Below are positions 1,048-23,447 of a DNA stretch of 64,000 nt, one piece after another. Made by a program: the position numbers and the translations under genes. The notes under the pieces are model-generated. The model saw only the letters and a program-made list of their open reading frames with translations. It had not been told where the DNA came from and made no database searches. Positions within the stretch are counted from its first letter, which is position 1. Each line of letters begins with the position of its first letter. The DNA is from Mycobacterium kiyosense (GTDB lineage: Bacteria; Actinomycetota; Actinomycetes; Mycobacteriales; Mycobacteriaceae), in contig AP025179.1 in NCBI GenBank assembly GCA_021654635.1, positions 2,666,001 to 2,730,000 on the forward strand. Direction: 5' to 3'.

Positions 1048-1211
1048 ATGCCATCTGTGGTAGTTGCACCGGATGTGGTCGCGGCGGCGGCGCGGGATGT
1101 GGCGCGGATTGGCTGGGCGGCAACGGCGGCACGACCGGCGGCATTGGCGGCAAAGGCGGCGTCGGCGGGCCGGGCGGCACGCCCGGCGGTATCAATGGCA
1201 TCAATGGATGA
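1048..1211 (+). pseudogene. PE_PGRS deletion remnant
   Basis: An ATG with a GGAGG ribosome binding site just upstream begins a canonical PE-domain N-terminus (MPSVVVAPDVVAAAARDVARIG). After about 20 codons the PE homology stops, and in another frame the DNA becomes the end of a PGRS domain (GGNGGTTGGIGGKGG, then GTPGGINGING and a stop at 1211). Nearly all of the PE domain and almost the whole PGRS domain are missing. The simplest reading is an internal deletion, perhaps between GC-rich repeats, that fused the first codons to the last and shifted the frame. It cannot make a normal PE_PGRS protein. Confidence 0.7.
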
Positions 1212-1566
1212 GCTGGTTTTCCTGTCGGCCGAGTCGGGGCCTCAACAGGATTTTCGGCAGCTGTTCGGACTTGGGATGAAACAGGAGTCCTCGGCGAGTC
1301 CGACGATGGCCACCCGGTCGGCAACTTCGGCGCGGCTGGCGCACCTGGTAACTCTCGGTCAGGCCATGATGGCTGCGGGAATGGTTGTCCTATTCCTCGG
1401 CACGCCGTTTGCGTCTCTGGGCTGGCGATCCTTGGTAGCCCGTACCGTGGCCCGAAAATGCAAGGTAACTGCGAACAGACGAAACGCTCATCGTCCCGAA
1501 TTACGTGGCAAATACCAGCAACAGCAGCCGATTAACTGCAACCTTGGCCCGGACAAGACACACAGG
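1212..1566. other. intergenic or decayed coding stretch
   Basis: No confident gene. The plus-strand frame that runs into the YHS protein stays open here and includes one hydrophobic segment (HLVTLGQAMMAAGMVVLFLG, about 1347-1406). That could be a remnant of a small membrane protein, but no start site supports it. Confidence 0.3.
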
Positions 1567-1770
1567 GTGGCCCTCGCCGTGGCCCGCCACCCACTCGACC
1601 CGGTCTGCGGCATGCGCATCGACCCGGCCACCGCACCCACCCGACTGCGCCACCACGATCGTGACTGGCGGTTCTGCTCAACCACATGCGCCCACCGATT
1701 CACCGCCGTACCAACTCGGTACACCGGCCAACCACAACACGGCAGAACAGAACAGGAAACACAGTCATGA
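1567..1770 (+). CDS. small YHS-domain protein
   Basis: A 67-aa protein whose core matches the YHS domain: HPLDPVCGMRIDP, then FCSTTCAHRF and a closing P-x-x-Y. The conserved Cys of DPVCGM and the FCS..C pair are the expected metal-binding residues. YHS domains occur alone or at the ends of heavy-metal ATPases and copper-handling proteins. The GTG start is chosen because it opens the domain; the frame extends further upstream, so the start is uncertain. The stop overlaps the next gene's start as ATGA, which implies coupled translation with the methyltransferase. A metal-related role fits the ctpG module next door, but this is inference. Confidence 0.6.
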   Translation: MALAVARHPLDPVCGMRIDPATAPTRLRHHDRDWRFCSTTCAHRFTAVPTRYTGQPQHGRTEQETQS

Positions 1771-2401
1771 CACCACGCTGGACTCGCAACCGGCTCAAAT
1801 TCTTCCTCGCGGGCCCGATATTCGAGGCCGGAAACCGCTTCATCCCCGGCAAGCCCCACGACCGTCTCGCGCAACACGTCGCCGCCCAGCGCCCCGGGCG
1901 TGTGCTAGAACTCTGCGGCGGCACCGGCTACGCGGCCCGGCTGCTCGCCACCCTCTCCCCGACACAATCATCGACTCCCTCGACATCTCCCCGGCGATGC
2001 TCGCCATCGGCCGACCCCAACTCGACCGCGCCGGGATTCACAACATGACTCTGCACGAGGGTGACGCCGCCGCACTCCCATTCCCCGACAACACATTCGA
2101 CGTTGTCATGAGCGTCTTCGGATGGCACGAACTACCCACCGACAGCCGCCATCAAGCTATCGACGAAACAGTCCGAGTGCTACGCCCAGGCGGGCGCGTC
2201 GTGGCCATCGACCTTGACCAACCACCCACCGCCCGACCGGCGTTCAACGCCTACCTGCGCCTAACCGAACGCCCCCATGCCCGCGACGTCCTCGGCACCG
2301 GCCTCGCCGACGAATTCACCGCCCACCACCTGACCATCACCGGCCACGAACCATCAACCAGTTGGACAACACCATTCCAGGTCCTCCAAGCCCATACCTG
2401 A
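1767..2401 (+). pseudogene. class I SAM-dependent methyltransferase, frameshifted
   Basis: The first part carries the SAM-binding motif I loop LELCGGTGYAARLLA. The rest, in a second frame, carries the acidic motif II (DSLDISPAMLAIGRPQL), FDVVMSVFGWHELP and VLRPGGRVVAIDLD, all typical of UbiE-like class I methyltransferases. The frame changes at a C run near 1957-1960; restoring one base gives a continuous 211-aa protein. As written the product is truncated. ATG 1767 overlaps the YHS stop. Substrate unknown. Real mutation or sequence error cannot be distinguished; other genes in this window show the same kind of indel. Confidence 0.6.
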
Positions 2402-2771
2402 AACACCGCACCAACCGGCACCACGTGGCCACCGGGCAGCGCCGCCAGCCGACATGCACGCGGGTCCACAGGGGCTCGACAAGGTCCTCAAGCCCGCTCG
2501 GTCTCTACTCAAACCAACAGCGAACAACTCCCAACCGACCAAGTCGAGCGCGGTGATTCCGGCTGGGTCGTCTGGGGTCCAACCCTTCATCGACGAGCAC
2601 GACACGTTACAGCGCCCATGCCGATGTCGACATCGAGCGCCGCTGCACGGTTCCATCGCCACCAACCGTGTTCCGCGATCAACGGATACATACCCTCTGA
2701 TCACCATTGGTAGTCAGAACCGGTGCGAAAGTAGTTACCCCAGCCGCGCAGGATCGAGTTCAAATCCGCGA
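2402..2771. other. intergenic, nothing recognised
   Basis: 370 bp between the ends of the methyltransferase and the convergent ctpG gene. Open frames on both strands are short and unconvincing. I see no strong hairpin, repeat or RNA gene. Confidence 0.4.
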
Positions 2772-5159
2772 TCATACCGCGGATACCGCACGACGTTGTC
2801 TCGGTGGGTAGCCGGTGAGCTGCCCGGCGGGCATTCTGCCCGTACTGCTGTGGTTGAGGGCTGTGATGCGGCCGGCGCGCACACCGTTGGCGATGACGAT
2901 GACCTCGGTGAGCTCGTGCACGAACACGACCGCGGCTAGGCCCAGGGTCCCGAACAACGCCAGCGGCATCAGCACCGTGATAATGCCCAGCGATAGTCCG
3001 ACGTTTTGCAGCATGATCCGTCGGGACCGGCGGGCGTGTTCTAGCGCTTGGGGCAGGTGCCGCAGGTCTTGGCCCATCAGCGCAACGTCGGCGGTTTCGA
3101 TGGCGACGTCGGTGCCCATGGCGCCCATGGCGATTCCCAGGTCGGCGGCGGCCAGAGCTGGAGCGTCGTTGACGCCGTCGCCGACCATCGCGGTGGGTCG
3201 CTGAGCTCGCAGCTGTCCGACCAGGCGCGCTTTGTCCTCGGGGCGCAGTTCGGCATAGACGTGCGCGATTCCGGCTTGATCGGCCAGGGCGGCGGCGGTG
3301 GCGTGGTTGTCGCCGGTGAGCATCGCCACCTGGTAGCCTTCCGCACGTAGCCTGCCGATAACTTCGGTGGCTTCAGGGCGTAATTCGTCGCGCACGGCGA
3401 TGGCACCGAGCAGTTGCTCGTCGCGTTCGACGAGAACCGCTGTGGCCCCGGCTTGTTGCATGCGCGCCACACGATCGGCGAGCTCGGCAGTGTCGAGCCA
3501 GCCGGGGCGTCCCAGTCGGAGGGTATGCCCGTCGAGGTGGCCGGTCAGCCCTGCCCCGGGGATGGCGTGCACGTCGCTGGCGGCGGCGATCGGCGCGTGG
3601 GTTGCGGCGAGGATGGCCGCGGCGAGGGGGTGTTCGCTGCGGGCCTCCAGCGCGGCCGCCACCGCCAGCACTTCCTCACGGGTGGCGCCGTTGGTGGTAG
3701 CGACGTCGATGACGGCGGGCCGGTTGGCGGTCAACGTGCCGGTTTTGTCCAGGGCGAGCCCGCCGATGGTGCCCAAGGCTTCCAGCGCGGCCCCGCCCTT
3801 GATGAGGACGCCTAGCTTGGAGGCGGCGCCGATGGCCGCCACGACAGACACCGGCACGGCGATGGCCAGCGCGCACGGGGAGGCCGCGACCAGCACTACC
3901 AGAGCGCGTTCAATCCAGACCGCCGGACTGCCGAAGACGCTGCCAGTCCCGGCGATCAGCGCCCCGGCGATCATGATGCCCGGCACCAGCGGACGTGCGA
4001 TACGGTCGGCCAGTCGCTGGCTGGCACCTTTGCGGGCCTGTTCGGCTTCCACGATGTGCACGATGCGTGCCAGCGAGTTGTCCTCTGCGGTGGCGGTGAC
4101 CTCCACCTGCAGCACCCCGGAGCCGTTGATCGACCCGGCGAATACTTCGTCACCGGGCCCGGCCTCGACGGGTACCGATTCGCCGGTGATCGCCGAGACG
4201 TCCAGGGCGCTGCGCCCGGCACGAATGACGCCATCGGTGGCCAGGCGTTCTCCGGGTTTGACGATCATGTGATCCCCCACCCGCAATTCGGCAGCGGTGA
4301 CAAGGGTTTCAGTGCCCTCTCGCAGCACCGTGGCCTGCTCGGGCACCAGCGAGAGCAGGGCGCGCAAACCGCGGCGGGTGCGCGCCACCGCGTACTCTTC
4401 CAAGCCCTCGCTGATCGAAAACAGAAATGCCAGCATGGTGGCCTCGCCGACCTGACCCAGTGCCACAGCGCCGGCCGCCGCGATGGTCATCAGGGTGCCG
4501 ACACCGATGCGGCCCTGGGCCACTCGCTTGAGACTGGAGGGCACGAACGTCGAGGCGCCCACCGCCAGCGCTAGGATCTTCAGGCCCAGTGCGACCGGCC
4601 CAAGGGGAGTCACCCACGCAGTAACCGCCGCGGCGGTCAGCAGCGCCCCGGACAACGCGGCCCGCCGCAGCCTGACGACTTGCCAGAGCCGCTGTGGCTC
4701 GCGCTCGTCATCGTGGTCGCAGCAGCCATCACTGAGCTTCGCGGCTCGTTGTGCGGCCCCGCCACCCCCGGCACCAGCGAGGTCAGCACCGCGCTGACCC
4801 GACCGCGTTCGCGCGGTCCAGTCGAAGATCTTCTGCACTACACCGGGCTTGCCGACCTCAGCCGAGTGCGGGGCACGCGCGGGCACCGACGTTGCAGGGA
4901 TCCGCTCGGCATCGGCGATCGCCGACAGGATGGCAGCGGTGTCGCAGCCCGCCGGCGAATGCCAGATCACTACTGATTCCGTTCGCGGATAGGCATGCAC
5001 GGCCTGCACACCTGTCACCGTGGCGACCGTGTCCTCGATCGCGACGGCCCGCACCGCGTCGAACCGAAACCCGCTAGCGTGCACACGCATCCGCCCCCCG
5101 GCGGCGGATACAACGGTCAGCTTGCCCCCGGCATCGGGGTGAGGAGCAGTGGTCAGCAT
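2772..5159 (-). CDS. ctpG: metal-exporting P1B-type ATPase CtpG
   Basis: A 795-aa P-type ATPase of the inner membrane that closely resembles M. tuberculosis CtpG. Visible parts: an HMA-like N-terminal domain (about residues 10-90); a Cys/His/Asp-rich linker with CC at 146-147; TGES in the actuator domain (325-328); the SPC transmembrane metal motif (427-429); the phosphorylated Asp471 in DKTGTLT; SEHPLA in the nucleotide domain; GDGVNDAP in the hinge; and HELTE in the last membrane segments. The family exports soft divalent metals such as Cd2+ using ATP. The start is the second of two adjacent ATGs because GGAGG is better spaced from it; 5162 is the alternative. It is the last gene of cmtR-pacL-ctpG, and its regulator's cognate metals suggest Cd/Pb efflux. 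Confidence 0.9.
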   Translation of the reverse strand: MLTTAPHPDAGGKLTVVSAAGGRMRVHASGFRFDAVRAVAIEDTVATVTGVQAVHAYPRTESVVIWHSPAGCDTAAILSAIADAERIPATSVPARAPHSAEVGKPGVVQKIFDWTARTRSGQRGADLAGAGGGGAAQRAAKLSDGCCDHDDEREPQRLWQVVRLRRAALSGALLTAAAVTAWVTPLGPVALGLKILALAVGASTFVPSSLKRVAQGRIGVGTLMTIAAAGAVALGQVGEATMLAFLFSISEGLEEYAVARTRRGLRALLSLVPEQATVLREGTETLVTAAELRVGDHMIVKPGERLATDGVIRAGRSALDVSAITGESVPVEAGPGDEVFAGSINGSGVLQVEVTATAEDNSLARIVHIVEAEQARKGASQRLADRIARPLVPGIMIAGALIAGTGSVFGSPAVWIERALVVLVAASPCALAIAVPVSVVAAIGAASKLGVLIKGGAALEALGTIGGLALDKTGTLTANRPAVIDVATTNGATREEVLAVAAALEARSEHPLAAAILAATHAPIAAASDVHAIPGAGLTGHLDGHTLRLGRPGWLDTAELADRVARMQQAGATAVLVERDEQLLGAIAVRDELRPEATEVIGRLRAEGYQVAMLTGDNHATAAALADQAGIAHVYAELRPEDKARLVGQLRAQRPTAMVGDGVNDAPALAAADLGIAMGAMGTDVAIETADVALMGQDLRHLPQALEHARRSRRIMLQNVGLSLGIITVLMPLALFGTLGLAAVVFVHELTEVIVIANGVRAGRITALNHSSTGRMPAGQLTGYPPRQRRAVSAV

Positions 5160-5263
5160 CATGCCTCCGTAGTTGTGGTTTGAGCCGAGCGATCTTTGTT
5201 TCATCCCACTCGCCCCGCGCGTCCAAAAGACCACCGTGGGACGAAGTGTGGACAGTCTGCTTG

Positions 5264-5542
5264 TCAGCAGCAGTCGTCGTCCTCGCGCTGGGTGGCAACC
5301 GGCAGGGGGGCCTCGTCGCCGATGCGCTCGCGGGCCTCGGCCACCACATCGGCGACCTTCAAACGGGCCGACTCGGCCGCCACCTCCGCGCGCCGGGTTC
5401 CCCGCAGACCCCACTCCGTAGCGGTCACCGCGGCGCGGTGAACCGGAGCCGCGCCCACCGCCTTCTTCACCACCTCATAGGCGCTCACCCCGACCAGCCC
5501 GGTGAACACCGTCCCGGCCGCCTTACCCAACAATTCAAGCAT
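5264..5542 (-). CDS. DUF1490 / PacL-type partner of CtpG
   Basis: A 92-aa protein of the mycobacterial DUF1490 family, like Rv1993c of M. tuberculosis. An N-terminal hydrophobic segment (about 8-28) is followed by an Ala/Glu/Arg-rich amphipathic region and a C-terminal tail ending EDDDCC, a plausible metal-binding motif. DUF1490 proteins (PacL) are encoded beside P-type metal ATPases and are reported to organise and stabilise them in membrane patches. The gene sits between cmtR and ctpG on the same strand, with a good AGGAAGG site before the ATG. The Cys pair at the C-terminus suggests a soft-metal preference (inference). Confidence 0.85.
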   Translation of the reverse strand: MLELLGKAAGTVFTGLVGVSAYEVVKKAVGAAPVHRAAVTATEWGLRGTRRAEVAAESARLKVADVVAEARERIGDEAPLPVATQREDDDCC

Positions 5543-5615
5543 CGCTAAACCTTCCTGCCGTGGTGTACTGTCAGCGAAATTCAGCCGGCCCGCTGTTCGC
5601 CGGATTCGTTGCTGC

Positions 5616-5987
5616 TCATCGATTACCTGTTCGATTACCTGTCATCTCGACCGCCCCCGCGAGCGGGGCTTGCTCGGCGGGGCAGGGCTGATCGGTATCC
5701 ACCGCGAGAACGACCTGCACCAACTCGCCCAAGGCACGGGTGAGGTGACTGTCGGCCAGCGCATACCGAACTTGGCGGCCCTCATAGGTTGCGATGACCA
5801 GCCCGCAGGCCCGCAGACACGACAAATGATTGGACACATTCGATCGGGTCAACCCCAGGTGCGACGCCAGCTGGCCGGGATAGCAAACCCCATCCAGCAG
5901 CGCCACAAGAATCCGGCACCGCGACGGATCGGCCAGCGCCCGACCCAGCCGGGCCAGCGCCGATTCCCGCGTCTCACACGTCAGCAC
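5616..5987 (-). CDS. cmtR: ArsR/SmtB-family Cd(II)/Pb(II)-sensing repressor CmtR
   Basis: A 123-aa winged-helix repressor nearly identical in pattern to M. tuberculosis CmtR. The three Cys that bind Cd/Pb in that protein are all present at the same numbers: Cys57 and Cys61 in the recognition helix (NHLSCLRACG) and Cys102 near the C-terminus (DTDQPC). Metal binding releases DNA and derepresses the operon. It is the first gene of cmtR-pacL-ctpG. The GTG start is supported by a -10 hexamer TACTGT seven bases upstream, so the mRNA is probably leaderless. Two palindromes over the -35 region are candidate operators for autorepression. Confidence 0.92.
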   Translation of the reverse strand: MLTCETRESALARLGRALADPSRCRILVALLDGVCYPGQLASHLGLTRSNVSNHLSCLRACGLVIATYEGRQVRYALADSHLTRALGELVQVVLAVDTDQPCPAEQAPLAGAVEMTGNRTGNR

Positions 5988-5994
5988 AACCGGA

Positions 5995-6030
5995 ACAGTA
6001 CAGCCGAAACTGACATGACAGCAAGTGCTG
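5995..6030 (-). promoter_or_regulatory. cmtR leaderless promoter with candidate CmtR operators
   Basis: On the minus strand TACTGT (5995-6000) lies 7 nt before the cmtR GTG. Immediately upstream, overlapping the expected -35 region, are two adjoining near-palindromes: CTGACATGACAG (6010-6021) and CAGCAAGTGCTG (6019-6030). Position and symmetry fit a repressor operator; binding by CmtR is inferred. Confidence 0.5.
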
Positions 6031-6492
6031 ATTGTCGCATTCGACCCTCCGCGCTGGCGTGGATTTCAGCGGGCGCCAGGGGCGATGGGGCCGCGACGCC
6101 GGTCAGCAGCTGCAGTCCGAGGCCCCCGGTCGATATCTCCGCCGGGTGGAATATGTTCCCGATGGCCGACCTGCGGGCGGCGGCACCCCGTTCATCGACG
6201 CGCGGTTCACACCGGCCCGCAACGCTGGCCGGCTCGTCGGACGGCGAATCACTCGATATTGCATCTGCCACGGTCGCCGACTCTGTCGGCGTTCCCGCGA
6301 TGCCAAAAGTGGGGTGACGACCGTCGGCGGCGCGGTTGTTGATTGGCCGGCGAGCGCATCAAGCTATCTGCCGCGGATGTTTCGGCCTGACCGTAGCCGC
6401 AGCTGGCGTGCGCAGGAAACGAGTTGTGGCGCCAATGATCACTCTGATTCTCGGCGGACACCACGGCCCGCCTTACGCGAGGAGCTACCGGC
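6031..6492. other. intergenic, nothing recognised
   Basis: About 460 bp upstream of cmtR. A short minus-strand frame (5981-6271) has no recognisable domain and runs through the cmtR promoter. No RNA gene or clear repeat is visible. Confidence 0.35.
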
Positions 6493-6738
6493 CAGGTGGT
6501 AGCGGATCAGCCGAGAGCTGTTGGTGACTACCGCGATCGAGGATGCGTTGTGCAGGATCGCGGCGAGCACCGGGGACAGTGCACCGCAGGCACCGATCAG
6601 CAGCCCGGCGGCGTTGACCGCGATCGACATGGCGTAGTTCTGGCCGATGACCTTGCCCGCGCGTGCACCCAGGTCAGACACGTCGAGCAGGCGTTGCAGG
6701 TTGTCGTTGGCCAACGCGACATCGGCGGTCTCGATAGC
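6493..6738 (-). pseudogene. 3' fragment of a P-type metal ATPase (CtpC-like)
   Basis: About 82 codons encode the end of a P1B ATPase: AIETADVALANDNLQRLLDV, then the last two membrane segments with QNYAMSIAVNAAGLLIGACG and LHNASSIAVVTNSSRLIRY. This ending resembles the CtpC group (Mn/Zn-type), not CtpG. All upstream parts (actuator, phosphorylation and nucleotide domains) are missing. The fragment shows that a second metal ATPase once stood beside the cmtR-ctpG module and was lost by deletion or a rearrangement joining different islands. Confidence 0.7.
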
Positions 6739-6756
6739 AGTAAAGAAAGTTCTCAC

Positions 6757-7052
6757 ATCGCAGGTCGGGGCCCTTTTTCCTCGCGGCCTTCGCCGGCGCC
6801 ATGCCGATCAACTGCGCGGCCCGAGAACACTGTGGTCGCGGCATGCGGGGCATGGCTGCGGCACCTCCTGGCTGAAAGCTCTCACACGCTCGCCGGGCGT
6901 CTGGCAGTTTCCGCTGGTCCAGTGTCCGGCGAGGCTATTGGGTCCGTGGCGGCGGACGGGAGCGCCAAGCGGACGGGAGCCGCCACGGCGGCTGTGTTGG
7001 CCCGCCGGGCATGAGCTGGCCGATGCTGAATAGACGGTCGGCGAGTGCTGGG
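6757..7052. other. intergenic, boundary between metal island and AICE block
   Basis: About 300 bp without a gene I can support. It separates the decayed ATPase from the HD-domain gene and could contain a left boundary of the integrative element, but I found no copy of the tRNA 3'-end sequence here. Confidence 0.35.
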
Positions 7053-7058
7053 TAGGCT
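7053..7058 (+). promoter_or_regulatory. leaderless -10 of the HD-domain gene
   Basis: TAGGCT lies six bases before ATG 7065. This fits mycobacterial leaderless promoters and sets the start of the HD protein. Confidence 0.5.
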
Positions 7059-7064
7059 AGCTTG

Positions 7065-7628
7065 ATGGCTGGTGTGCTGGCGGAGCGTGCCCGCGTGGTC
7101 GCAGAAGCGCGGCTGGAGCCGTTGGCGACGCGGTTGGCGCATGTGCGTGGTGTGGCGGCTGCCGCGGAGCGGTTGGTCTCGCGCATCGATCCGTTGGAGG
7201 CCGACGCGCTGATTGCCGCGGCCTGGCTGCACGATGTCGGATACGCGCCGTCGCTGTGTGCGACCGGTTTTCATCCGGTAGATGGCGCTGCGTTTGTTCG
7301 GGCGGAGAATTTCCCGCCGCTGGTGGTGTCGCTGGTGGCGTATCACACGGGCGCGGTGTTCGAAGCGCGGGAACGTGGCTTGTCGGACGTGTTGGGGGAG
7401 TTCCCGCAGCCACCGGATTTTTTGCTGGACTTATTGACCTGTGCAGACATGACGACCGGCCCGGACGGTTCGCCGATGCGCCCCGACGGTCGGATCAGCG
7501 AAATCCTGTCGCGGTATCCCGCTGAGGATCCGGTGCACCGTGCGATCGAGCGCTCCGCGCCGACATTGCTTGCCGCGGCTGCTCGTGTGGAGGTCCTCGC
7601 GCAACAGGCAACTTCCGGCGCGGAATGA
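7065..7628 (+). CDS. HD-domain phosphohydrolase-like protein
   Basis: A 187-aa protein with HD-domain landmarks: an early His (RLAHVRGVA), the metal-binding AAWLHDVGY, and a later AYHTGAVFE. HD proteins are metal-dependent phosphohydrolases acting on nucleotides or phosphate esters; the substrate here is unknown. Small HD proteins of this type are frequent next to Nudix and XRE genes in actinomycete integrative elements. The start follows a -10 hexamer by six bases. The gene converges with the Nudix gene, leaving a 5-bp gap. Confidence 0.65.
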   Translation: MAGVLAERARVVAEARLEPLATRLAHVRGVAAAAERLVSRIDPLEADALIAAAWLHDVGYAPSLCATGFHPVDGAAFVRAENFPPLVVSLVAYHTGAVFEARERGLSDVLGEFPQPPDFLLDLLTCADMTTGPDGSPMRPDGRISEILSRYPAEDPVHRAIERSAPTLLAAAARVEVLAQQATSGAE

Positions 7629-7633
7629 TCTCG

Positions 7634-8104
7634 CTAACCCAGGTATGGGGTTGGCCGCTGTTCGAGGTAGTGCTGGATGCGTAGCCGCATCGACGGATGC
7701 ATGCTCAGCGACTCAATATCTTGTGCGCGTGCCCAGGCGATGTTGGTGCTCTCGGAATCGATGTGCAGCTCGCCACCGATGAGTCGTGTGGTGAAGCATA
7801 GCGAAAATTGTTGGCGCACTTCGCCATCAGTGTAAGCCATGACGTGGCGCGGGTTGGTGTAGACGCCGATCAGGCCAGTGACTTCGACATCAAGGCCGGT
7901 TTCTTCCTTGACTTCACGCACCGCGGTTTCCACGATCGATTCGCCTAAGTCCATTCCGCCCCCGGGCAGTGCCCATAGGTCGTTATCGCGGCGTTTGATG
8001 AGCAGGATGCGAGCTTGCTCGTCGGTTACGACGGCTGTGGTGGAGGGCACCACACTGTTGGCGGGAGGCGCATCGGGATCGTTGTAGTAGTCGATTCGGG
8101 CCAT
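7634..8104 (-). CDS. Nudix hydrolase, Pif-like context
   Basis: A 156-aa protein with a full Nudix box: GGGMDLGESIVETAVREV continuing into KEETGLD, matching G-x5-E-x7-REUXEEXGU. The N-terminus (MARIDYYNDPDAPPANSVVP) is typical of Nudix proteins in actinomycete elements. The family hydrolyses nucleoside diphosphate derivatives. In pSAM2 the Nudix protein Pif blocks redundant transfer between element carriers; a similar entry-exclusion role is plausible here but inferred. Start ATG 8104 has an AGGGGA site. The XRE gene lies directly upstream on the same strand, 32 bp away. Confidence 0.75.
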   Translation of the reverse strand: MARIDYYNDPDAPPANSVVPSTTAVVTDEQARILLIKRRDNDLWALPGGGMDLGESIVETAVREVKEETGLDVEVTGLIGVYTNPRHVMAYTDGEVRQQFSLCFTTRLIGGELHIDSESTNIAWARAQDIESLSMHPSMRLRIQHYLEQRPTPYLG

Positions 8105-8136
8105 CTGGTTCCCCTGGTGTGAACGGGTCCGGCTGG

Positions 8137-8904
8137 TTATGGGTGAGCTTGGATAGGACGTGCGGTGTTCCAGACCCGTTCGAAGGCGAGTCGATGGTCG
8201 TTCCATAGGTCTGGTGCGTCGTCGCGCTTGATCACGATGGCGGGATTGTCGCTAGCCGGGGCACCGTAAAGGTGCGGGTTGGCGATAAGCGTGTCATCGG
8301 CGCGGAACATTGACGTGTACAGCGGTGCGGTGTGGGTGCGGATCTCCAGTCCCGAAGTGTCCGAGAGTGGTTGCAGGCGTGTCAATGTCATCCGGCAACG
8401 TGCCGCCAGGGCGGCTCCGATGCCTTCTTCCGCGCCACGCTGCATTACTGTGGCGCACTCGGGGTCACCGATGATGAAGCGGACCGCCACGCCGCGTTCG
8501 GTCGCGGCGGCGAGCATCTTGGTGAAGCGGGGAAGGCCGTCAAACAGGAATGTGCCGCCGTAGACCAGGATGTCAAGATGTTCGGCGGCGTCTTCGAATA
8601 ACTGCTTCCAGACGGTGATCGGGACGTCGGCTCGGCTGCTGTACACGCTGACGGCGACGGTGCCGGCGCTCGGCGGCGTCATGATCGGGAATAGATCGGG
8701 CCACAGGTCGGCCGGGTCGCAATCGAGCACCTCGGCGGTGCGGCGAGCATTCTGAGGGTAGGGCGCGGTTTCGCCCGACAGCCACCGCTCGACAGTCTTG
8801 GCGTCGACGGCGATTAGATCCGCTAGTTCTTGCACGCCTAGCCTTGTGCGCTCGATCTGAGCACGCAGTTGGCGGTTCGGCTTCGGTGTGTCCTGGTTAC
8901 CCAC
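8137..8904 (-). CDS. XRE-family regulator with C-terminal sensor-like domain
   Basis: 255 aa. Residues about 10-70 form an XRE-type helix-turn-helix (QIERTRLGVQELADLIAVDA, then KTVERWLSGETAPYPQNARR). The rest resembles the DUF5919/phospholipase-D-like fold found on such regulators (ITVWKQLFEDAAEHLDILVY, IIGDPECATV). This layout is common in AICEs, where it is thought to control transfer genes. The GTG start has AGGGAG upstream. It is transcribed divergently from the SCO3933-tra-rep operon, and GATGTC repeats between them are candidate operators. Confidence 0.7.
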   Translation of the reverse strand: MGNQDTPKPNRQLRAQIERTRLGVQELADLIAVDAKTVERWLSGETAPYPQNARRTAEVLDCDPADLWPDLFPIMTPPSAGTVAVSVYSSRADVPITVWKQLFEDAAEHLDILVYGGTFLFDGLPRFTKMLAAATERGVAVRFIIGDPECATVMQRGAEEGIGAALAARCRMTLTRLQPLSDTSGLEIRTHTAPLYTSMFRADDTLIANPHLYGAPASDNPAIVIKRDDAPDLWNDHRLAFERVWNTARPIQAHP

Positions 8905-8927
8905 CCGGTTGGCTCCCTACCTGTGAT

Positions 8928-9015
8928 GACATCGGTGTCCCGCACGATGTCGCCCGCTGTCCGAAGTCTGCCATGCAGATGTCCACAGATGCCGCCGAGA
9001 TGCGGTTTCGATGTC
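8928..9015. promoter_or_regulatory. GATGTC repeat array, candidate operator between divergent operons
   Basis: GATGTC occurs at 8946-8951, 8978-8983 and 9010-9015, exactly 32 bp apart each time (about three helical turns), plus an inverted GACATC at 8928-8933. The array occupies the intergenic region between the XRE regulator and the transfer/replication operon. Regular spacing on one face of the helix suggests cooperative binding of a regulator, most simply the XRE protein; that assignment is inferred. Confidence 0.4.
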
Positions 9016-9084
9016 TCAGATGCCGGGCTGAAGTGGGAGTCACTGCCGACGAGCGGCCGTACCGTTCCAGAAGGGATCAAACAA

Positions 9085-9477
9085 ATGCGTCTTCGAATCG
9101 ACACGACTGCAGCGCAGTTCTTCTGCACGCGCGAAGCTGAGCAGCGGACCGTGCACGAAACCGGTGCACCGCGGATCGACAAAGAAACGGGCCTGGTGCT
9201 CTGGCAAGTCCAGCTCATGGCCCTCGACCAGGACGGCGGGGAGATACTCGCCGTCACGGTGGCCGGCGAACCCAATGTCAAAGTGGGCGAGCCCGTCGCG
9301 GTCGAAGCTTTGGTGGCGATCCCGTGGTCACAGGGTGATCGCTCGGGAGTCGCGTTCCGGGCAACCTCAATCCGGCCAGCTGGTGCTCAGTCGGGCGTAC
9401 TTGGGCCACGTCCCACCGCCGCCGGCGGTAGCTCGCAATCCGCCCCCGCAGCCAAGCAGACCGGCAACAACGCGTAG
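9085..9477 (+). CDS. SCO3933-family element protein
   Basis: 130 aa beginning MRLRIDTTAAQFFCTREAE, followed by the family-typical IDKETGLVLWQVQLMALD, VTVAGEP and AIPWSQGDRSGVAFRATSIR, then a Pro/Ala/Gln-rich tail. These small proteins are annotated as SCO3933-family regulatory proteins and occur just before the tra gene in many actinomycete integrative elements; their biochemical role is not established. ATG 9085 is chosen for its AGAAGGGA site and conserved start. First gene of the right-hand operon. Confidence 0.7.
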   Translation: MRLRIDTTAAQFFCTREAEQRTVHETGAPRIDKETGLVLWQVQLMALDQDGGEILAVTVAGEPNVKVGEPVAVEALVAIPWSQGDRSGVAFRATSIRPAGAQSGVLGPRPTAAGGSSQSAPAAKQTGNNA

Positions 9478-9620
9478 CGGAGCGGGCGCCAAGCCATAAG
9501 CCTCACCAGGCCTGGCGCCTGCTTCACAAAAGCTTTGTATGCAAACAAGATTCGGCGTTCCCGGGCATGTCGGCGACGAGCGTGCCCAGGCGGCGTCTGC
9601 AGCGAAGGGAACAAGGCATT
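9478..9620. promoter_or_regulatory. gap before tra with two short palindromes
   Basis: The 143-bp gap contains CCAGGCCTGG (9506-9515) and the near-palindrome ACAAAAGCTTTGT (9526-9538). They could be operator sites or part of a cis-acting transfer locus such as clt, which in pSAM2-type elements lies near tra. There is no direct proof. Confidence 0.3.
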
Positions 9621-11039
9621 ATGCCTCCAAAGAGCAAGGTCAGTAATTCATCCGATGAGGATTGGGTCGGCGAGCTGCTGGTCGGCGTAGTCAAGGCCAC
9701 CAGCATCGGGATGTTCCGGTTTGCGCTGCGCTGGCCGGACATCGCGACCGTTTTGACCGTCTTCGCGGTCACCGGCGTCTTGGGCGGCTTGCGTTGGGCC
9801 TGCGTGCTGACCACGGTGTGGGCGGTTGGCGTATGGGGGTGGCGGTTGGGTGAGCCGGACTCCTATCAGCGGCTGATCGGCAAGCCGGTCGCTGATTATC
9901 GGCGCACGTATCTCGTGTATCGGCGACGCTGGCGCACCATCTGCGAACACCACGGCCTGACCATCTCCCCGCGCGGCAAACCCGACGCCGACCCGCTGGT
10001 GCCCGATTTGTCCTCGGTGCGCATCGGCGCGGCGGTCGACACCTTGGTAGTGCGGCTACTGGTCGGGCAATCTGTCAAAACCTGGCAGGCGCAAGTCGAC
10101 GGCCTGGCCGCAGCGTTCGGCGCCCACCATGTGACGATTCAACCCGGGCCGGTGGCCACGGGCCGGGGCCGCGACATCGTGATTCGCGTCCGCCACCACG
10201 ACGCCCTGGCCGCTCCCATCCCGCTGGCGCGTCCGTGCCCCGACACTCGCGTGGTGCGGCTGGCCAACGTGCCCGTGGGGACTACCGAGCAGGGCAGCCC
10301 GTGGTCGCTGCCGCTGTTCGGCCGCCACATCCTGGTCGGTGGGGCCACCGGCGCCGGCAAGGGCTCAGTGCTGTGGTCCCTGGTGGCCGGACTCGCACCG
10401 GGCATCAAAGCCGGCCTGATCGCCGTGCGCTGTCTGGACCCCAAGGGCGGTATGGAATTCGCTGCCGGCCAAGCCTTGTTCGACCGCTTCGCCTATGACA
10501 GCGATTCGATTCTGGCGGTGTTGCGCGACACGACGGCCACCATGGTGGGCCGAGCCCAGCGGTTGCGCGGAACCACCCGCTGTCATCGGCCCACCCGCGC
10601 CGAACCCCATATCGTGCTGCTGGTCGATGAGTTGGCCACCCTGACCGCCTATGCCGATCGCAAACAACGCGCCGAAGTCGACCAACTCCTCGGATTGTGG
10701 CTGGCCCAAGGCCGCGCGGTCGGAGTCAGTGTGATCGCCGCCGTGCAAGACCCCTCCAAAGACGTCGTCGCGCTGCGCCAACTGTTCCCGGTTCGGGTCG
10801 GGCTGCGCATGACCGAAGCCACCCAAACCGCGATGATCCTGTCCACGGCGGCCCACCAGCAGGGCGCACGCTGCGAAGAAATTCCCGACACCACGCCGGG
10901 CGTGGGTTATGTGCTCACCGAAGGCAACACCGCCGTAGCGCGAGTGCGGGCGTTTCATGTCACCGACACCGACATCGCCTGGCTTGCAGACAATTTCGCC
11001 CCACCGGCCCGTCGCGCCAGCAACCAGGGGCACCGGTGA
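9621..11039 (+). CDS. FtsK/SpoIIIE-type DNA translocase (TraSA-like conjugation protein)
   Basis: 472 aa. Two hydrophobic segments (about 41-74) anchor the N-terminus in the membrane. The motor domain has Walker A GGATGAGKGS (240-249) and Walker B IVLLVDEL (331-338), followed by AVQDPSKDVVALRQLFP, typical of FtsK-like conjugation ATPases. In actinomycete elements one such protein assembles into a hexamer that pumps double-stranded DNA into the recipient. ATG 9621 has an AAGGGA site; an upstream in-frame ATG (9567) lacks support. The stop overlaps the next GTG as GTGA. This is the main evidence that the element is, or was, conjugative. Confidence 0.85.
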   Translation: MPPKSKVSNSSDEDWVGELLVGVVKATSIGMFRFALRWPDIATVLTVFAVTGVLGGLRWACVLTTVWAVGVWGWRLGEPDSYQRLIGKPVADYRRTYLVYRRRWRTICEHHGLTISPRGKPDADPLVPDLSSVRIGAAVDTLVVRLLVGQSVKTWQAQVDGLAAAFGAHHVTIQPGPVATGRGRDIVIRVRHHDALAAPIPLARPCPDTRVVRLANVPVGTTEQGSPWSLPLFGRHILVGGATGAGKGSVLWSLVAGLAPGIKAGLIAVRCLDPKGGMEFAAGQALFDRFAYDSDSILAVLRDTTATMVGRAQRLRGTTRCHRPTRAEPHIVLLVDELATLTAYADRKQRAEVDQLLGLWLAQGRAVGVSVIAAVQDPSKDVVALRQLFPVRVGLRMTEATQTAMILSTAAHQQGARCEEIPDTTPGVGYVLTEGNTAVARVRAFHVTDTDIAWLADNFAPPARRASNQGHR

Positions 11040-11233
11040 GTATCCTCGCATCGACCTCGCTGACCGACTGGCTGGCACCGGGTTCCCCGGCCATCGATCA
11101 GGCGATCCGCGGCGCCTCACCCGGCCACGACTTCCACGCGCGGTGCACCCGCTCATCCCGGGCTAGCGAGGCCGACAGCGAGAACACCACCGGCACAGCC
11201 GGCGACAGCGGCAACCGTGCGGGGCACCAGTGA
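11036..11233 (+). CDS. 65-aa protein coupled between tra and rep
   Basis: A small acidic protein beginning MSILASTSLTDWLAPGSPAI and ending in a Ser/Thr/Glu/Gly-rich tail. Its GTG start overlaps the tra stop (GTGA) and has AGGGG upstream; its own stop overlaps the rep GTG in the same way. The double overlap makes it likely to be translated. No known domain. Short frames between tra and rep are common in AICEs, so a role in transfer or replication control is possible. Confidence 0.6.
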   Translation: MSILASTSLTDWLAPGSPAIDQAIRGASPGHDFHARCTRSSRASEADSENTTGTAGDSGNRAGHQ

Positions 11234-12850
11234 GCGCCGTCCACGAGGCAGGGAGCCCGGCAATCACACTGCCGGGTCTTCCCGCCGACATCGACCACCA
11301 CCGCGTGATCACCCAGATGGTGCGCCGCGCTTGCTCTCCGGGATTCGACGCCTGGTGGCGGCGCACCGAATCGGTCGGGTTCTGCGTCAACCCCATCCAA
11401 CTCGTCGGCACCGACGACTACGGTCGCAAAAGAATCGTATGGGTGCGGTGCAACAACCGCCGCGCCGCCGTCTGTCCCTCCTGCTCAGACCTGTACGCCC
11501 GCGACACTTGGCAACTCGTCGCCGCAGGAACCACCGGAGGCCGCCACAACATGAGCCCCGCCGTGGCCGACCGTCCCCAGGTATTCGTCACATTGACCGC
11601 GCCCAGCTTTGGCTCCGTCCATGGCAGCAGAGGCAGCGTCTGCCGTGACCACAGGACGATGGGTGGCTACAAGCGATGCCCGCACGGAAAACCCCTATGG
11701 TGCAGCACCATGCATGACGGCACCGATCCCACGGTCGGGCAACCGCTGTGCGCCGAGTGCTACGACTACCTCGGGCACGTCCTGTTCACCTGGCACCTGC
11801 CCGAACTATGGCGGCGTTTCACCATCGCCCTACGACGCAACCTCGCCAAACACCTCAAAGCTGCTGGCATCGAACCGAGTTCGGTGAAAGCCAGTTTCGT
11901 CAAGGTCGTCGAAATGCAGGCCCGTGCCATCCCCCACATCCACGCTCTCATCCGGCTCGATCCACCCGACGACCCCACCGGTACCGCCACCGCTGGCTCA
12001 CGTGACCACAACGATCACGGTCCCACCGCCACATGTGGCGGTGGGGAGGCACGTTCGGCAACCGGCCCTGCCTGGGAGCCGCCGATGTCTGCCGCCAAAC
12101 TCGCCGCCCTTATCCAGCAGGCCGCCCGCGCCGTCACCCTCGACGTTCCCAACCCCGACACCAACCGCCAAGCCGACAACCCCAACGAGTCTGGCGACGC
12201 TGCGCCGCTGGTGGTCCGGTTCGGCACACAGATCGATACCCAACCACTGAGGGCCGAAAACTGTGCGGCCCCAACAGAATCAGACACAGCCGTGGCCATC
12301 AGCCGGATGTCGTCACGGCGCATCTCCGGATACCTGGCCAAATACGTCACCAAATCCCTGCAAGACTTCGGTATCGCCGCCCGCCGCCTATCCGCTGAAG
12401 CCATCGCGGACCTCGACGTCACCGACCACGTCCGGGCGATCCTGACCACCATCGCCCACGTAGCAGACCAAGCCCACACCCTCGGTATCGATGCCTTGGC
12501 AGGGATCGGTCGCTGGCTACATACTCTGGGCTACCGGGGACATGTCACCACCAAATCCCGCCGCTACTCGGTCACCATGGGCGCGCTACGCGCCATCCGC
12601 GCCACCTGGGCCCGACACCAAGCAGGCAAAGACTTTTCACCACAACACCATTCGCCACTCGATCTAACCGAGCAAAGCGACGACGTGTGGTGGGAGTTCG
12701 ACCACGCCGGACACGCCACCCCCGGCGACCGCACCCCTCGTCTACTCCGCGGCCCTCCAACGGATCCACACCCGCCGCATCGGACTGGTGGAAGCCCGTC
12801 GCCAAGCCCGCGAGCAACAATGGGATCCGCCAGGGGGGCGCGATGACTGA
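11230..12850 (+). CDS. RepSA-type rolling-circle replication initiator
   Basis: About 539 aa. A Cys pair (CPSC, 82-85) and further Cys/His in 150-177 suggest zinc binding. HUH-endonuclease motifs are in order: FVTLTAPSFG (119-128), PHIHAL (His236, His238) and GYLAKYVTKS (367-376; candidate Tyr368 or Tyr372). The family nicks the origin of the excised circular element and starts rolling-circle replication. A frameshift probably lies at the C run 12719-12723: as written the frame ends at 12846 with a Pro/Arg-rich tail, while removing one C gives a family-like helical end (LVYSAALQRIHTRRIGLVEA) stopping at 12850. Translationally coupled to the gene before it. Confidence 0.8.
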
Positions 12851-12929
12851 CAAGTCCCGAACAGCACGTGCTCGCCCCGAGTGTGGCGCTCGAATCGATG
12901 CGCCGACCATGTCAGAGGGGGGGTGTTGA
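12843..12929 (+). other. 28-codon frame after rep, possible excisionase remnant
   Basis: ATG 12843 overlaps the rep end and reads MTDKSRTARARPECGARIDA, ending MSEGGC. In AICEs an excisionase gene normally follows rep. Only a stub remains, and its last codons come from a tRNA-3'-end-like sequence, as if the gene were cut at an attachment site. Confidence 0.35.
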
Positions 12930-12930
12930 A
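12910..12930. promoter_or_regulatory. candidate attachment site resembling the tRNA-Leu 3' end
   Basis: TGTCAGAGGGGGG (12910-12922) matches the tRNA-end sequence TGTCCGAGGGGGG (14666-14678) at 12 of 13 positions, and TTGAA follows in both (with a 1-bp spacing difference). The two copies flank the recombinase gene. This fits an attL/attR pair around a 1.76-kb recombinase-only element, or an old tRNA end displaced by successive insertions. Confidence 0.5.
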
Positions 12931-12989
12931 ATTGTCTTGCCCGACCACTGTCGACTTCCGCGCGAGGCCAACCGCGCGCTGGTACACGT

Positions 12990-12995
12990 CATAAT
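12990..12995 (+). promoter_or_regulatory. possible -10 of the recombinase gene
   Basis: CATAAT lies in the 108-bp gap upstream of the recombinase. It fits a mycobacterial -10 moderately; no clear -35. A strong AGGGAGGGA site follows at 13022-13030. Confidence 0.3.
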
Positions 12996-13037
12996 GGCTG
13001 TGCGGGACCGGACGCTCGGATCAGGGAGGGAAGTGGC

Positions 13038-14684
13038 GTGAGCCTGAGGTTCGCCTTCTACGGCCGAGTGAGCACCGAGGACGCTCAAGACCCGGAGGCG
13101 AGCCGCAGCTGGCAGAGGCGCCGGGCCGTCGACCTGATCACTCCGCATGGCGGAGTCCTCGCCGCTGACTACTTCGATGTGGGACAGAGCCGCTCGCTGC
13201 CGTGGAAGCGCAGGCCGGAGGCATCACGTCTGCTTGTTGATGTCGCTTCTCGTGACCGCGGCTTCGATGCCGTGGTGATCGGGGAACCCGCCCGTGCGTT
13301 CTACGGGCCGCAGTTCGCGCTCACTTTCCCGGTGCTCACGCACTATGGGGTCGGCCTGTGGGTGCCCGAGGTCGGCGGAGCGGTCGATCCCGGCTCCGAG
13401 GCGCATGACCTTGTGATGACGCTTTTCGGCGGTATGAGCAAGGGAGAGCGGGCGCGAATCCAGATGCGTGTTCGTGCGGCGATGTCGGCACTCGCGCAGG
13501 ACACGAGCAGATATCTCGGTGGCCGACCACCGTATGGTTACCGGCTCGTTGATGCCGGTCCGCACCCGAACCTTGCTAAGGCAAATCTCGGGCAGCGGCT
13601 TCACCGCCTCGAACCCGACCCCGAGACTTCTCCGATCGTCGAGCGGATCTACCGCATGTACGCCGATGGTGCTGGCCTCCGCTACATTGCGCAACGGCTC
13701 ACCGACGATGGCGTGCCGTCACCGAGCCAGTATGACCCGGTGCGGAATCGTCACCGTGACCCGCGAGGTTGGTCTCATTCGGCGATCCGCGCGATACTCG
13801 ACAACCCGACATATCGCGGTGTCCGCGTTTGGGGCAAGCAGGAGAAGTACGAGGTCCTGGTCAACCCTGACGATGTCGCCGCGGGGTATGAGACACGTAT
13901 GCGGTGGCGTGATGAGGCAGACTGGATCGCACCGGACCGCCGCACCCACGAAGCGCTGATCCCTGACGAACTGGCGCAGGCTGTTCGTCTTCGGACGCAG
14001 GCGCGGCGGGGTCCCGGTCTCGTCTGCAGCAGAGAATCGACGGTGCCGTATGCGCTGCGCGGACTGCTGTTCTGCGCCGCGTGTGGACGGCGGATGCAGG
14101 GCGCCGCTCGCGTCGGGAAGCGAACAACCCGCATCCTCTACCGTTGTGAGCTGGGTAAGTCGCGTTCTGTGCCTGCAGACCTGAGTGATCACCCGCGCAC
14201 TGTCTATCTCCGTGAAGACGAGGTGACAGCGCGACTTGACGAATGGATCGCCACCCTGGCCGATCCGGAAGACCTCGCACGCGGGCAGGACGCGGACCCG
14301 GCACCAGGAACTGGCTACGCCGCCTTGCAGCGCCAGCTCAGCGCGGCGAATGGCAAGGTTGCTGCTTTGGTTACCGCCGTGGAGTCTGGTGTGGCCGTTG
14401 AGGATTTGACTGCTGCATTGCGTCGCCGCACCGCTGAGCGCGACGAGCTGAGGGCCCGTCTTGAGCGAGCGGAGCGGCCCCGCGTCATGTCTGCCGCACA
14501 GATCAGCGAATTGGTCACGGAGTTGGGTGGGCTGTCAGCCGTGCTTGGTGCGGCAACGGGGGCGGAACGCGCACTTGTGTACGCAAGCCTAGGTTTGCGT
14601 CTTGACTACGATCCCTACATGCGACGAGTCACGGCAACGGCCGACCTGAGTCGTGTCGCCGGATGTGTCCGAGGGGGGACTTGA
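13038..14684 (+). CDS. large serine recombinase (site-specific integrase)
   Basis: 548 aa. The N-terminal resolvase domain starts FAFYGRVSTEDAQDP, with nucleophile Ser12; MSKGERARIQMRVR and GGRPPYGYR follow. A recombinase domain (WSHSAIRAILDNPTYRG) leads to a zinc ribbon (FCAACGRRM with a later YRCELGK), then a coiled-coil region (RRRTAERDELRARLERAERP). This is the architecture of large serine integrases, which need no host factor to integrate. GTG 13038 has AGGGAGGGA upstream. The last codons, Val-Arg-Gly-Gly-Thr-stop, are encoded by the 3' end of the tRNA-Leu on the other strand, so integration completes the reading frame. Confidence 0.9.
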   Translation: MSLRFAFYGRVSTEDAQDPEASRSWQRRRAVDLITPHGGVLAADYFDVGQSRSLPWKRRPEASRLLVDVASRDRGFDAVVIGEPARAFYGPQFALTFPVLTHYGVGLWVPEVGGAVDPGSEAHDLVMTLFGGMSKGERARIQMRVRAAMSALAQDTSRYLGGRPPYGYRLVDAGPHPNLAKANLGQRLHRLEPDPETSPIVERIYRMYADGAGLRYIAQRLTDDGVPSPSQYDPVRNRHRDPRGWSHSAIRAILDNPTYRGVRVWGKQEKYEVLVNPDDVAAGYETRMRWRDEADWIAPDRRTHEALIPDELAQAVRLRTQARRGPGLVCSRESTVPYALRGLLFCAACGRRMQGAARVGKRTTRILYRCELGKSRSVPADLSDHPRTVYLREDEVTARLDEWIATLADPEDLARGQDADPAPGTGYAALQRQLSAANGKVAALVTAVESGVAVEDLTAALRRRTAERDELRARLERAERPRVMSAAQISELVTELGGLSAVLGAATGAERALVYASLGLRLDYDPYMRRVTATADLSRVAGCVRGGT

Positions 14685-14751
14685 ACCCCCACGCCCATTA
14701 GTAGGGCACTAGCACCTCAAGCTAGCGCGTCTGCCATTCCGCCACTCGGAC
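14666..14751 (-). tRNA. tRNA-Leu (anticodon GAG)
   Basis: Read on the minus strand: a 7-bp acceptor stem GTCCGAG/CTCGGAC with discriminator A, D arm, anticodon stem CTAGC/GCTAG around loop TTGAGGT (anticodon GAG), a long class II variable arm with a TGCCC/GGGCG stem, and the T arm GGGGGTTCAAGTCCCCC. CCA is not encoded. It decodes CUC/CUU. Its 3' end overlaps the last 19 bases of the serine recombinase and is the integration target of the accessory region. Confidence 0.95.
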
Positions 14752-14853
14752 AAGGCCAACTGAGTTGGCAGCTAAGGCTATCGGATCGGTTCGCGTCGGC
14801 CCAATCGGGCTGGCCCGACCCGTGGCCCGTCGGTAGTGGTAGGAAAGGTGACT

Positions 14854-18012: not shown

Positions 18013-18110
18013 AGGCTTCTGGACGAGGGCGGCGACCCCCGTGGTGCGTGAGGGTGACCGGAGGGGCTGCGGCCGGGCACCGCGCCACTCAGGTCAAGGG
18101 GATCGCAGCC

Positions 18111-23336: not shown

Positions 23337-23447
23337 TACCTGCGGGTCGAGCGGTCCGGCGGGCAGCGAGCGTGAGCCGACCGCGTTGCATTCCCGATAG
23401 CCCACGTCAATATCGATCGGCGGCAGCCGAGTTGGGGTGTAGAGGAT

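What the first reader, a model, noticed from the sequence alone, without database searches (positions are those of the whole stretch)
7065..12850. AICE-type conjugative element in a Mycobacterium
Seen: an FtsK-type Tra ATPase, HUH replication initiator, SCO3933-family protein, XRE regulator, Nudix and HD proteins in a compact, coupled layout, close to a tRNA. Known: this set defines actinomycete integrative and conjugative elements (pSAM2, SLP1), best described in Streptomyces and relatives. Inferred: a mycobacterial AICE able, now or formerly, to move double-stranded DNA with a single Tra protein. This is the best candidate here for an undescribed system.
Basis: partly seen in the sequence, partly recalled or inferred. 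Interest (0 to 1): 0.8.

Follow-up and report, generated by a model that had tools for sequence, protein, structure and literature searches.

The report
Mycobacterial AICE island at leucine tRNA
These genes are the right-hand end of a 94,000-base island in a mycobacterium's leucine tRNA gene and belong to an already described family of mobile elements; relatives 40,000 to 61,000 bases long are almost letter-identical in different species, so they have probably spread recently, likely pumped from cell to cell as double-stranded DNA by one protein.

Summary
HD, Nudix, XRE, SCO3933-family, FtsK-type Tra and RepSA genes lie at 7086-12846. A 19-bp core (14665-14683) is attR. An identical core with the element's other arm lies 93,946 bp to the left, outside the window. 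The block is therefore the backbone end of a 94-kb element. The kind is known: Ghinet 2011 (PMC3218068) reported Mycobacterium AICEs with similar serine recombinases in one tRNA-Leu gene. What I add: 77 of 396 genus genomes carry core plus arm. In the 47 of these with both ends on one contig and strand the median length is 47.7 kb. Among 11 whole elements compared, four sets of 40-61 kb agree across species to 0-22 mismatches, with right flanks 71-84% alike. Tra does not fall within FtsK or EccC, though deep nodes are weak. The window's own copy has no near twin, many insertion sequences and a Rep tail out of frame with relatives, so present mobility is uncertain. Transfer by Tra is inferred, not shown.

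The parts
1..14683 (.). the part of the 93,946-bp element that lies in the window; attL is outside it at G000:C1:2586719-2586737
   Evidence: identical 19-bp cores at genome 2586719 and 2680665, no other within 3 mismatches in 2574001-2730000; length 93,946
2772..5414 (-). cargo: heavy-metal (cadmium family) P-type ATPase
   Evidence: TIGR01525 583 bits, TIGR01512 521 bits; an 81% homologue lies beside HD in the G185 element, in the other orientation
5642..5987 (-). cargo: CmtR, Cd/Pb-sensing repressor
   Evidence: NF047906 178 bits, cut-off 150
7086..7628 (+). HD-domain hydrolase ('mdp' of AICE papers)
   Evidence: PF01966 37.5 bits
7634..8104 (-). Nudix hydrolase
   Evidence: PF00293 72.2 bits
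8137..8904 (-). XRE-type regulator: N-terminal HTH plus a phospholipase-D-like C-terminal domain
   Evidence: HTH_31 21.7 bits, below its cut-off; model pLDDT 82; Foldseek hits to TrmBL2 and PLD-fold proteins, query TM-scores about 0.33-0.49
9085..9477 (+). SCO3933-family protein
   Evidence: NF051478 75.2 bits, cut-off 80
9621..11039 (+). Tra: FtsK/SpoIIIE-type ATPase, 472 aa (ORF opens at 9567)
   Evidence: PF01580 40.3 bits; homologues; model; tree
11036..11233 (+). small 65-codon ORF whose start overlaps the Tra stop and whose stop overlaps the Rep start
   Evidence: read directly from the sequence; no homologue sought
11230..12846 (+). RepSA-family replication initiator; last ~35 codons out of frame with relatives
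   Evidence: PF20199 408.6 bits over residues 39-501; tails compared
13038..14684 (+). large serine recombinase (integrase), 548 aa
   Evidence: Resolvase, Recombinase and Zn_ribbon_recom; phrog_95 integrase 219 bits; 57 related loci
14665..14683 (+). attR core, identical to the 3' end of the tRNA gene and to attL
14665..14751 (-). tRNA-Leu(GAG), the integration target
   Evidence: ARAGORN, Rfam 54.4 bits

Best explanation
[quoted passage not shown] it likely leaves and enters that gene through its serine integrase, and is predicted to replicate through a RepSA initiator and to cross to another cell as double-stranded DNA through its single FtsK-type Tra protein. Shown: both ends carry the same 19-bp core; the right core is the 3' end of the tRNA gene, so the integrated element supplies that end of the tRNA; the integrase gene runs into the core; in attP-type sites of relatives the element's two arms form an inverted repeat (CGTGTCG / CGACACG) around the core; a relative without the element (G006) has the plain tRNA. 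Shown for relatives, not for this copy: complete 40-61 kb elements occur nearly unchanged in different species. Inferred: integrase plus an unidentified directionality factor excises a circle; Rep copies it by rolling circle; Tra hexamers pump it into a recipient, where it enters the same tRNA gene. Nudix, HD and XRE would regulate transfer and exclude sister copies (Pif-like role, by analogy only). Cargo (metal ATPases, efflux, PPE and others) rides along.
For: Gene families. att cores at both ends. Integrase relatives in 57 named loci; tRNA-Leu(GAG) begins at the core (within one base) in 48 of them, and two of the other nine (L126, L148) show attP-type sites. Core-plus-arm pattern in 77 of 396 genus genomes, with no hit for the reversed control pattern. 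An integrase-type right end in 57 of these 77, on the same contig and strand as a left end in 47. Near-identical whole elements across species with divergent flanks. Presence/absence at the tRNA: 5 of 24 other genus relatives. Same gene order in three Streptomyces-type replicons from the plasmid collection: regulator, small protein, FtsK, Rep; an integrase gene follows Rep in all three, on the opposite strand in one. Tra profile scores: those Streptomyces-type Tra 87-135 bits, own FtsK 68, EccC domains at most 36.
Against: No circle, empty attB in this strain or transfer is shown. No near-identical copy of the window's own element was found: best of 26 named loci, 86% over half of 8.5 kb. The Rep tail is out of frame with relatives. 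The 94 kb is the largest of 47 and holds many IS genes, a group II intron maturase and reverse transcriptase, another serine recombinase and a tyrosine integrase, so it may be a composite. Tra's best NCBIfam matches are EccCb 33.6 and EccCa 28.2 bits (cut-offs 347 and 509), ahead of plasmid TraB 21.4 (cut-off 800); by PDB profile FtsK 72, TcpA 67 and EccC 67 bits are about equal. In the tree the Tra clade (92/81, not fully supported) is drawn next to three EccC domains, not next to the Streptomyces Tra, at a weak node (78/83). No directionality factor was identified (none was searched for systematically), and only two-copy repeats of 8-14 nt were found near tra and rep, no clt-like array. 20 of the 77 genomes with a left-type site have no integrase-type right end.
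Confidence: 0.85

Rival explanations
1. The window's copy is a decayed AICE: once mobile, now stuck. Its integrase and Tra look intact, but Rep has a changed tail and the cargo is full of insertion sequences.
For: Rep tail out of frame against relatives; no near-identical twin in 26 compared named loci; IS110-, DDE- and Mutator-type transposases and a group II intron maturase and reverse transcriptase in the cargo.
Against: Integrase is full length and 91-94% like its closest relatives, Tra full length; the RepSA domain match (residues 39-501) lies before the changed tail; both att cores identical.
Confidence: 0.4
2. The 94 kb is not one element: a smaller AICE sits next to other islands that share the tRNA site, and the left core belongs to an older neighbour.
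For: Largest of 47. Just left of attL lies a truncated piece 91-95% like the inside of other elements of this family, so accretion at this site has happened. A second serine recombinase and a tyrosine integrase lie inside. Tandem pair in G185.
Against: Only two cores within 3 mismatches in the stretch read and no internal attP-type junction; metal ATPase cargo next to HD also in the G185 element; sequence directly left of the core resembles the tRNA 3' flank in other genomes (by eye).
Confidence: 0.3
3. The elements spread, but not by Tra: phages, vesicles or helper conjugation systems carry them, and Tra does something else.
For: Function of Tra untested; conjugation shown in Mycobacteriaceae needs other genes (relaxase, VirB4, VirD4, TcpC and T7SS; PMC8190616 passages). 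Tra was found in 43 of 57 integrase loci, not in all (contig ends and distance explain an unknown part).
Against: Among 28 of 36 called ORFs of the 40.4-kb G016 element no relaxase, VirB4 or VirD4 family was matched (2 ORFs spanning locus borders and 6 backbone or doubtful ones were not scanned).
Confidence: 0.12

Closest known systems
Mycobacterium AICEs, tRNA-Leu serine-recombinase group (Ghinet et al. 2011, PMC3218068; sections 6 and 8 read, other parts as passages)
   Same: serine recombinases of high similarity, one tRNA-Leu target; their search required Int, Rep and FtsK-type Tra
   Different: their member list and sizes are in a supplement that I could not read (they looked in 30- to 60-kb regions); here the ends are mapped, the element is 93.9 kb, and 40-61 kb members are compared whole
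pSAM2 and other RepSA-type AICEs of Streptomyces
   Same: RepSA initiator, FtsK-type Tra, Nudix gene; order Tra-Rep-Int in AICE-like replicons read here
   Different: most AICEs use tyrosine integrases (only 19 of 144 had a serine one, PMC3218068); spread (Spd) genes seen in one Streptomyces replicon were not recognised here; reported sizes 11.9-36.3 kb in one Streptomyces population (PMC9513070, passage)
Frankia AICEs, Sco5349, pSE211, pMEA100 (mdp-nud-xre cluster; PMC3218068 passages)
   Same: HD-Nudix-XRE cluster; tandem AICEs at one tRNA already reported in Frankia and Streptomyces
   Different: the pSE211 and pMEA100 Tra clades go with other replication proteins (section 8)
ICEMyc226 (PMC7478629, passages)
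   Same: conjugative element in Mycobacteriaceae
   Different: T4SS-type with relaxase, 388 kb; no such genes matched in the ORFs scanned here

Membership tests
AICE | site-specific integrase next to one att site | tested here: met
   serine recombinase runs into the att core
AICE | flanking att direct repeats, usually at a tRNA 3' end | tested here: met
   19-bp cores 93,946 bp apart, right one in tRNA-Leu(GAG)
AICE | RepSA, RepAM or Prim-Pol replication gene | tested here: met
   PF20199 408.6 bits; NF041486 222 bits against a cut-off of 700; tail altered
AICE | FtsK/SpoIIIE-type Tra distinct from chromosomal FtsK and EccC | tested here: met
   profile scores; clade without FtsK and EccC at 92/81, window inside at 95/93; deep nodes weak
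AICE | no relaxase or type IV secretion genes | tested here: inconclusive
   none matched, but only 42 of 76 called ORFs of the interval were scanned, plus the window's backbone and ATPase genes
AICE | excision as a circle | not testable with these tools
   no reads; attP-type sites seen only in other loci
AICE | transfer of double-stranded DNA by Tra alone, acting at clt | not testable with these tools
   no clt-like repeat array found
AICE | size as reported (11.9-36.3 kb in one Streptomyces survey); usual, not defining | tested here: not met
   93.9 kb; family median 47.7 kb
Mycobacterium tRNA-Leu serine-recombinase AICE group (Ghinet 2011) | similar serine recombinase in the same tRNA-Leu gene | tested here: inconclusive
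   the recombinase and a tRNA-Leu target are met, but their eight members were not compared directly and their tRNA's anticodon was not seen
ESX (EccC) or chromosomal FtsK | Tra falls within EccC or FtsK | tested here: not met
   but EccC models are its best, sub-threshold NCBIfam hits

The most novel reading that the evidence does not exclude
Mycobacteria share a genus-wide traffic of very large AICEs: a one-protein, double-stranded-DNA conjugation machine carries whole 40-61 kb catabolic islands (P450, Baeyer-Villiger-type monooxygenases, acyl-CoA enzymes), and metal-resistance islands up to 94 kb, into one tRNA-Leu gene of widely different species, so recently that whole elements differ by 0-22 letters.
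Probability: 0.6. Interest if true: 0.75.

Novelty: new member of a known kind. Interest (0 to 1): 0.5.

Why it matters
How non-tuberculous mycobacteria exchange large gene blocks is poorly known; described routes are T4SS/T7SS plasmids and distributive transfer (the latter recalled). Here is a genus-wide element family with exact ends, one main target site and whole copies nearly identical across species, so excision, integration and transfer can be tested directly. Mycobacterial AICEs of this family are also mostly larger than those reported in one Streptomyces survey, with catabolic and metal cargo.

Tried and rejected
Rejected: Tra as a chromosomal FtsK or EccC (contrary hints are told above); a fixed chromosomal block; 'tandem AICEs are new' (already in PMC3218068). 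Led nowhere: clt or Rep-origin repeats; solved structures related to the integrase by sequence (none at E 0.001); a second att copy inside the window (no exact match of 14 bases or more to 14640-14790, plus strand, minus strand); M. cosmeticum and M. brisbanense papers as earlier descriptions (passages only, nothing seen on this element). Literature: the searches listed no paper whose title or abstract start describes near-identical 40-61 kb AICEs across mycobacterial species; supplements could not be read, and subscription papers are not held, so this is weak evidence of absence. One pattern hit is doubtful: G235 counts as attP-type by pattern, but its left flank does not read like an integrase end, so I treat it as attL; seven attP-type hits in 77 genomes remain, of which only G185 was checked gene by gene. 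G276 has attL and attR on opposite strands and was dropped from the size count; nine further genomes with an integrase-type attR had no attL on the same contig and strand, and 20 of 77 had no such attR.
Full report
WHAT IS THERE. The window is G000:C1:2666001-2730000 of a 6.35-Mb one-contig genome. Its stop lies inside tRNA-Leu(GAG), 14665-14751 on the minus strand.

THE ENDS. In two loci (L078 of G185, L063 of G000) DNA similarity to the element runs through window position 14683 and stops there; the core is then followed not by the tRNA but by an arm that the two loci share. That arm defines the other half of the element's attachment site. The same 19-bp core with such an arm occurs in the own genome at 2586719, in the same orientation as the core at 2680665; no third core within 3 mismatches lies in 2574001-2730000. 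The interval is 93,946 bp. Sequence just left of the left core resembles, by eye, the 3' flank of this tRNA in other genomes. The left flank of the empty site of G006 is found about 102 kb away from the tRNA in the own genome, which first showed that the island is large. Between that flank and attL lies a truncated piece, 91-95% like the interior of other elements of the family: a sign of earlier insertion at the same site.

THE FAMILY. The integrase has relatives at 57 named loci, a few of them outside Mycobacteriaceae. tRNA-Leu(GAG) begins at the core, within one base, in 48 of the 57; in three others (L103, L106, L129) the core is followed by a sequence in which ARAGORN finds no tRNA. All seven backbone genes are found at 31 of the 57, Tra at 43, Rep at 42. 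The core-plus-arm pattern is present in 77 of 396 genus genomes; the reversed control pattern gave no hit. 57 of the 77 have an integrase-type right end; in 47 it lies on the same contig and strand as a left end. Lengths run from 1.8 to 93.9 kb, median 47.7 kb; 39 of 47 exceed 24 kb; the window's is the longest; for G185 and G252 the nearest left end is an attP-type junction. Rep relatives occur in 53 of 198 genus genomes, and G000 itself has further Rep loci near 1.67, 1.93, 4.14 and 4.70 Mb, those at 1.93 and 4.14 with a stop inside.

RECENT SPREAD. I compared 8.5 kb left of attR with 3.5 kb right of it in 27 sequences (26 of the 57 named loci, chosen for having attR and long flanks, plus the window). 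Of 351 pairs, 52 have elements at least 95% identical over at least 90%, and in 51 of these 52 the aligned part of the flanks is below 85%. Examples at 100.0% (rounded): M. parascrofulaceum, M. koreensis, M. austroafricanum and strain IS-1742. I then compared 11 complete elements (11 of the 47). Near-identical whole elements: G087 and G191, 61,045 bp, 2 mismatches, right flanks 71.2%; G016, G068 and G045, 40,412 bp, 2 to 5 mismatches, right flanks 84.2, 76.1 and 76.3%; G022 and G099, 52,779 aligned columns, 0 mismatches and 2 gap positions, right flanks 79.1%; G145 and G357, 54,693 bp, 22 mismatches, right flanks 83.3%. The window's element (G000) and G019 had no such partner. Eight of the nine near-identical copies lie on contigs of over 4 Mb, and the held set is one genome per species, so a mixed sample is an unlikely cause. 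For the window's element the best of the 26 named loci is 86% over half of 8.5 kb.

CARGO. In the 40,412-bp G016 element 28 of 36 called ORFs were scanned, and in G022 ten of 43: ferredoxin (G016), ferredoxin reductase, P450 (G022), flavin monooxygenases, acyl-CoA ligases, thiolase, biotin carboxylase and an AtuA-family protein (G022), dehydrogenases, TetR and AraC regulators (G016). This looks like a terpenoid-type catabolic set; the substrate is inferred. No relaxase or type IV secretion family was matched. The window's own interval (42 of 76 called ORFs scanned, plus those) carries metal ATPases, a cation efflux protein, an MMPL protein, four PPE proteins, transposases, a group II intron maturase and other recombinases.

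TRA. With a profile of 24 relatives, three Streptomyces-type Tra proteins outside the profile score 87-135 bits, the own chromosomal FtsK 68, and EccC domains at most 36. In the tree the mycobacterial Tra proteins, with one MAG relative and one Tra-like protein from 3.84 Mb, stand apart from FtsK and EccC (92/81) and the window lies inside (95/93). Results that do not help: the clade is drawn next to three EccC domains rather than next to the Streptomyces Tra, at a weak node (78/83), so the deeper kinship is open; the NCBIfam hits of Tra are EccCb 33.6, EccCa 28.2, EssC 22.4, TraB 21.4 and FtsK 18.1 bits, all far under their cut-offs; and by PDB profile FtsK 72, TcpA 67 and EccC 67 bits are about equally near. 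The model (pLDDT 82.7) has N-terminal helices and an FtsK-type motor domain, with no separate domain after it; its best structural matches are the conjugation coupling protein TcpA and FtsK.

THE REGULATOR. The XRE-type protein joins an HTH to a domain with a phospholipase-D-like fold, nearest by E-value to TrmBL2, an archaeal chromatin protein; TM-scores are modest (query about 0.33-0.49). Its task is unknown; a sensor role is a guess.

HOW IT LIKELY WORKS. Integrase and an unidentified directionality factor cut the element out at the cores; the tRNA gene would be whole in both states, because the core is its 3' end. Rep copies the circle; Tra pumps double-stranded DNA into a neighbour; integrase inserts it in the same gene. 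Only the site structure and the spread of whole relatives are shown; excision, replication and pumping rest on what is known of AICEs (PMC3218068, sections 6 and 8 read).

KNOWN OR NEW. Ghinet et al. 2011 reported eight highly similar Mycobacterium serine recombinases that target one tRNA-Leu gene, called integration into tRNA genes by serine recombinases rare, and described the mdp-nud-xre cluster and tandem AICEs. So the kind is known and the window holds a new member. PMC8190616 and PMC7478629 (passages) say that few AICEs have been reported in Mycobacteriaceae; the AICE-like contig of the former, BCTA01000038.1, has the accession prefix of the M. novocastrense assembly in which L110 lies. 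In what I saw of the papers I did not find the large size or the near-identity of whole elements across species.

STATE OF THIS COPY. Integrase and Tra are full length. The last ~35 codons of Rep are out of frame with relatives, after the end of the RepSA domain match. Intact relatives exist.

Noticed in passing
L063:11600-11740 (G000:C1:1706671-1706704, minus strand): An attP-type site (59 bp like the integrase end, core, other arm) with no tRNA found in the 20-kb locus; about 30 kb further along lie SCO3933, Tra and Rep of another AICE-like locus. Unexplained.
   Followed up: partly
L086:10233-12690: Truncated piece of another element of the family directly left of attL, 91-95% like L126 and L063; it holds two ORFs of 322 and 285 codons that look like a regulator and nucleotidyltransferase pair (by eye).
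   Followed up: partly
L195, L196, L078, L091, L092 (G185:C1:2287617-2360899): Two different AICEs in tandem at one tRNA-Leu with an attP-type junction between them; the right one (29.7 kb) carries metal ATPases.
   Followed up: yes
L150:94-9049: A complete small relative (8,955 bp between cores, each with one mismatch) on a metagenome-assembled contig labelled Actinomycetes, integrase 60% identical.
   Followed up: partly
G002, G011, G023 near tRNA-Leu (L197-L199): Two cores only 1.2-2.4 kb apart with no integrase end: remnants or integrase-less passengers.
   Followed up: partly
L201:7400-10622 (NZ_AP022578.1, pJCM15296 of M. aubagnense): A 266-kb plasmid carries an 85.5% integrase match in two pieces and a Rep match in three pieces, apparently broken.
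   Followed up: no
window 18048-23400: PE_PGRS-like glycine-rich repeat region, GC near 79%, split over several frames (by eye).
   Followed up: no
window 23946-32842, minus strand: PPE-like protein with long asparagine/glycine-type repeats, open in two overlapping frames (by eye).
   Followed up: no
G000:C1:3838795-3839301: A further Tra-like protein (520 codons) that groups beside the AICE Tra proteins.
   Followed up: partly
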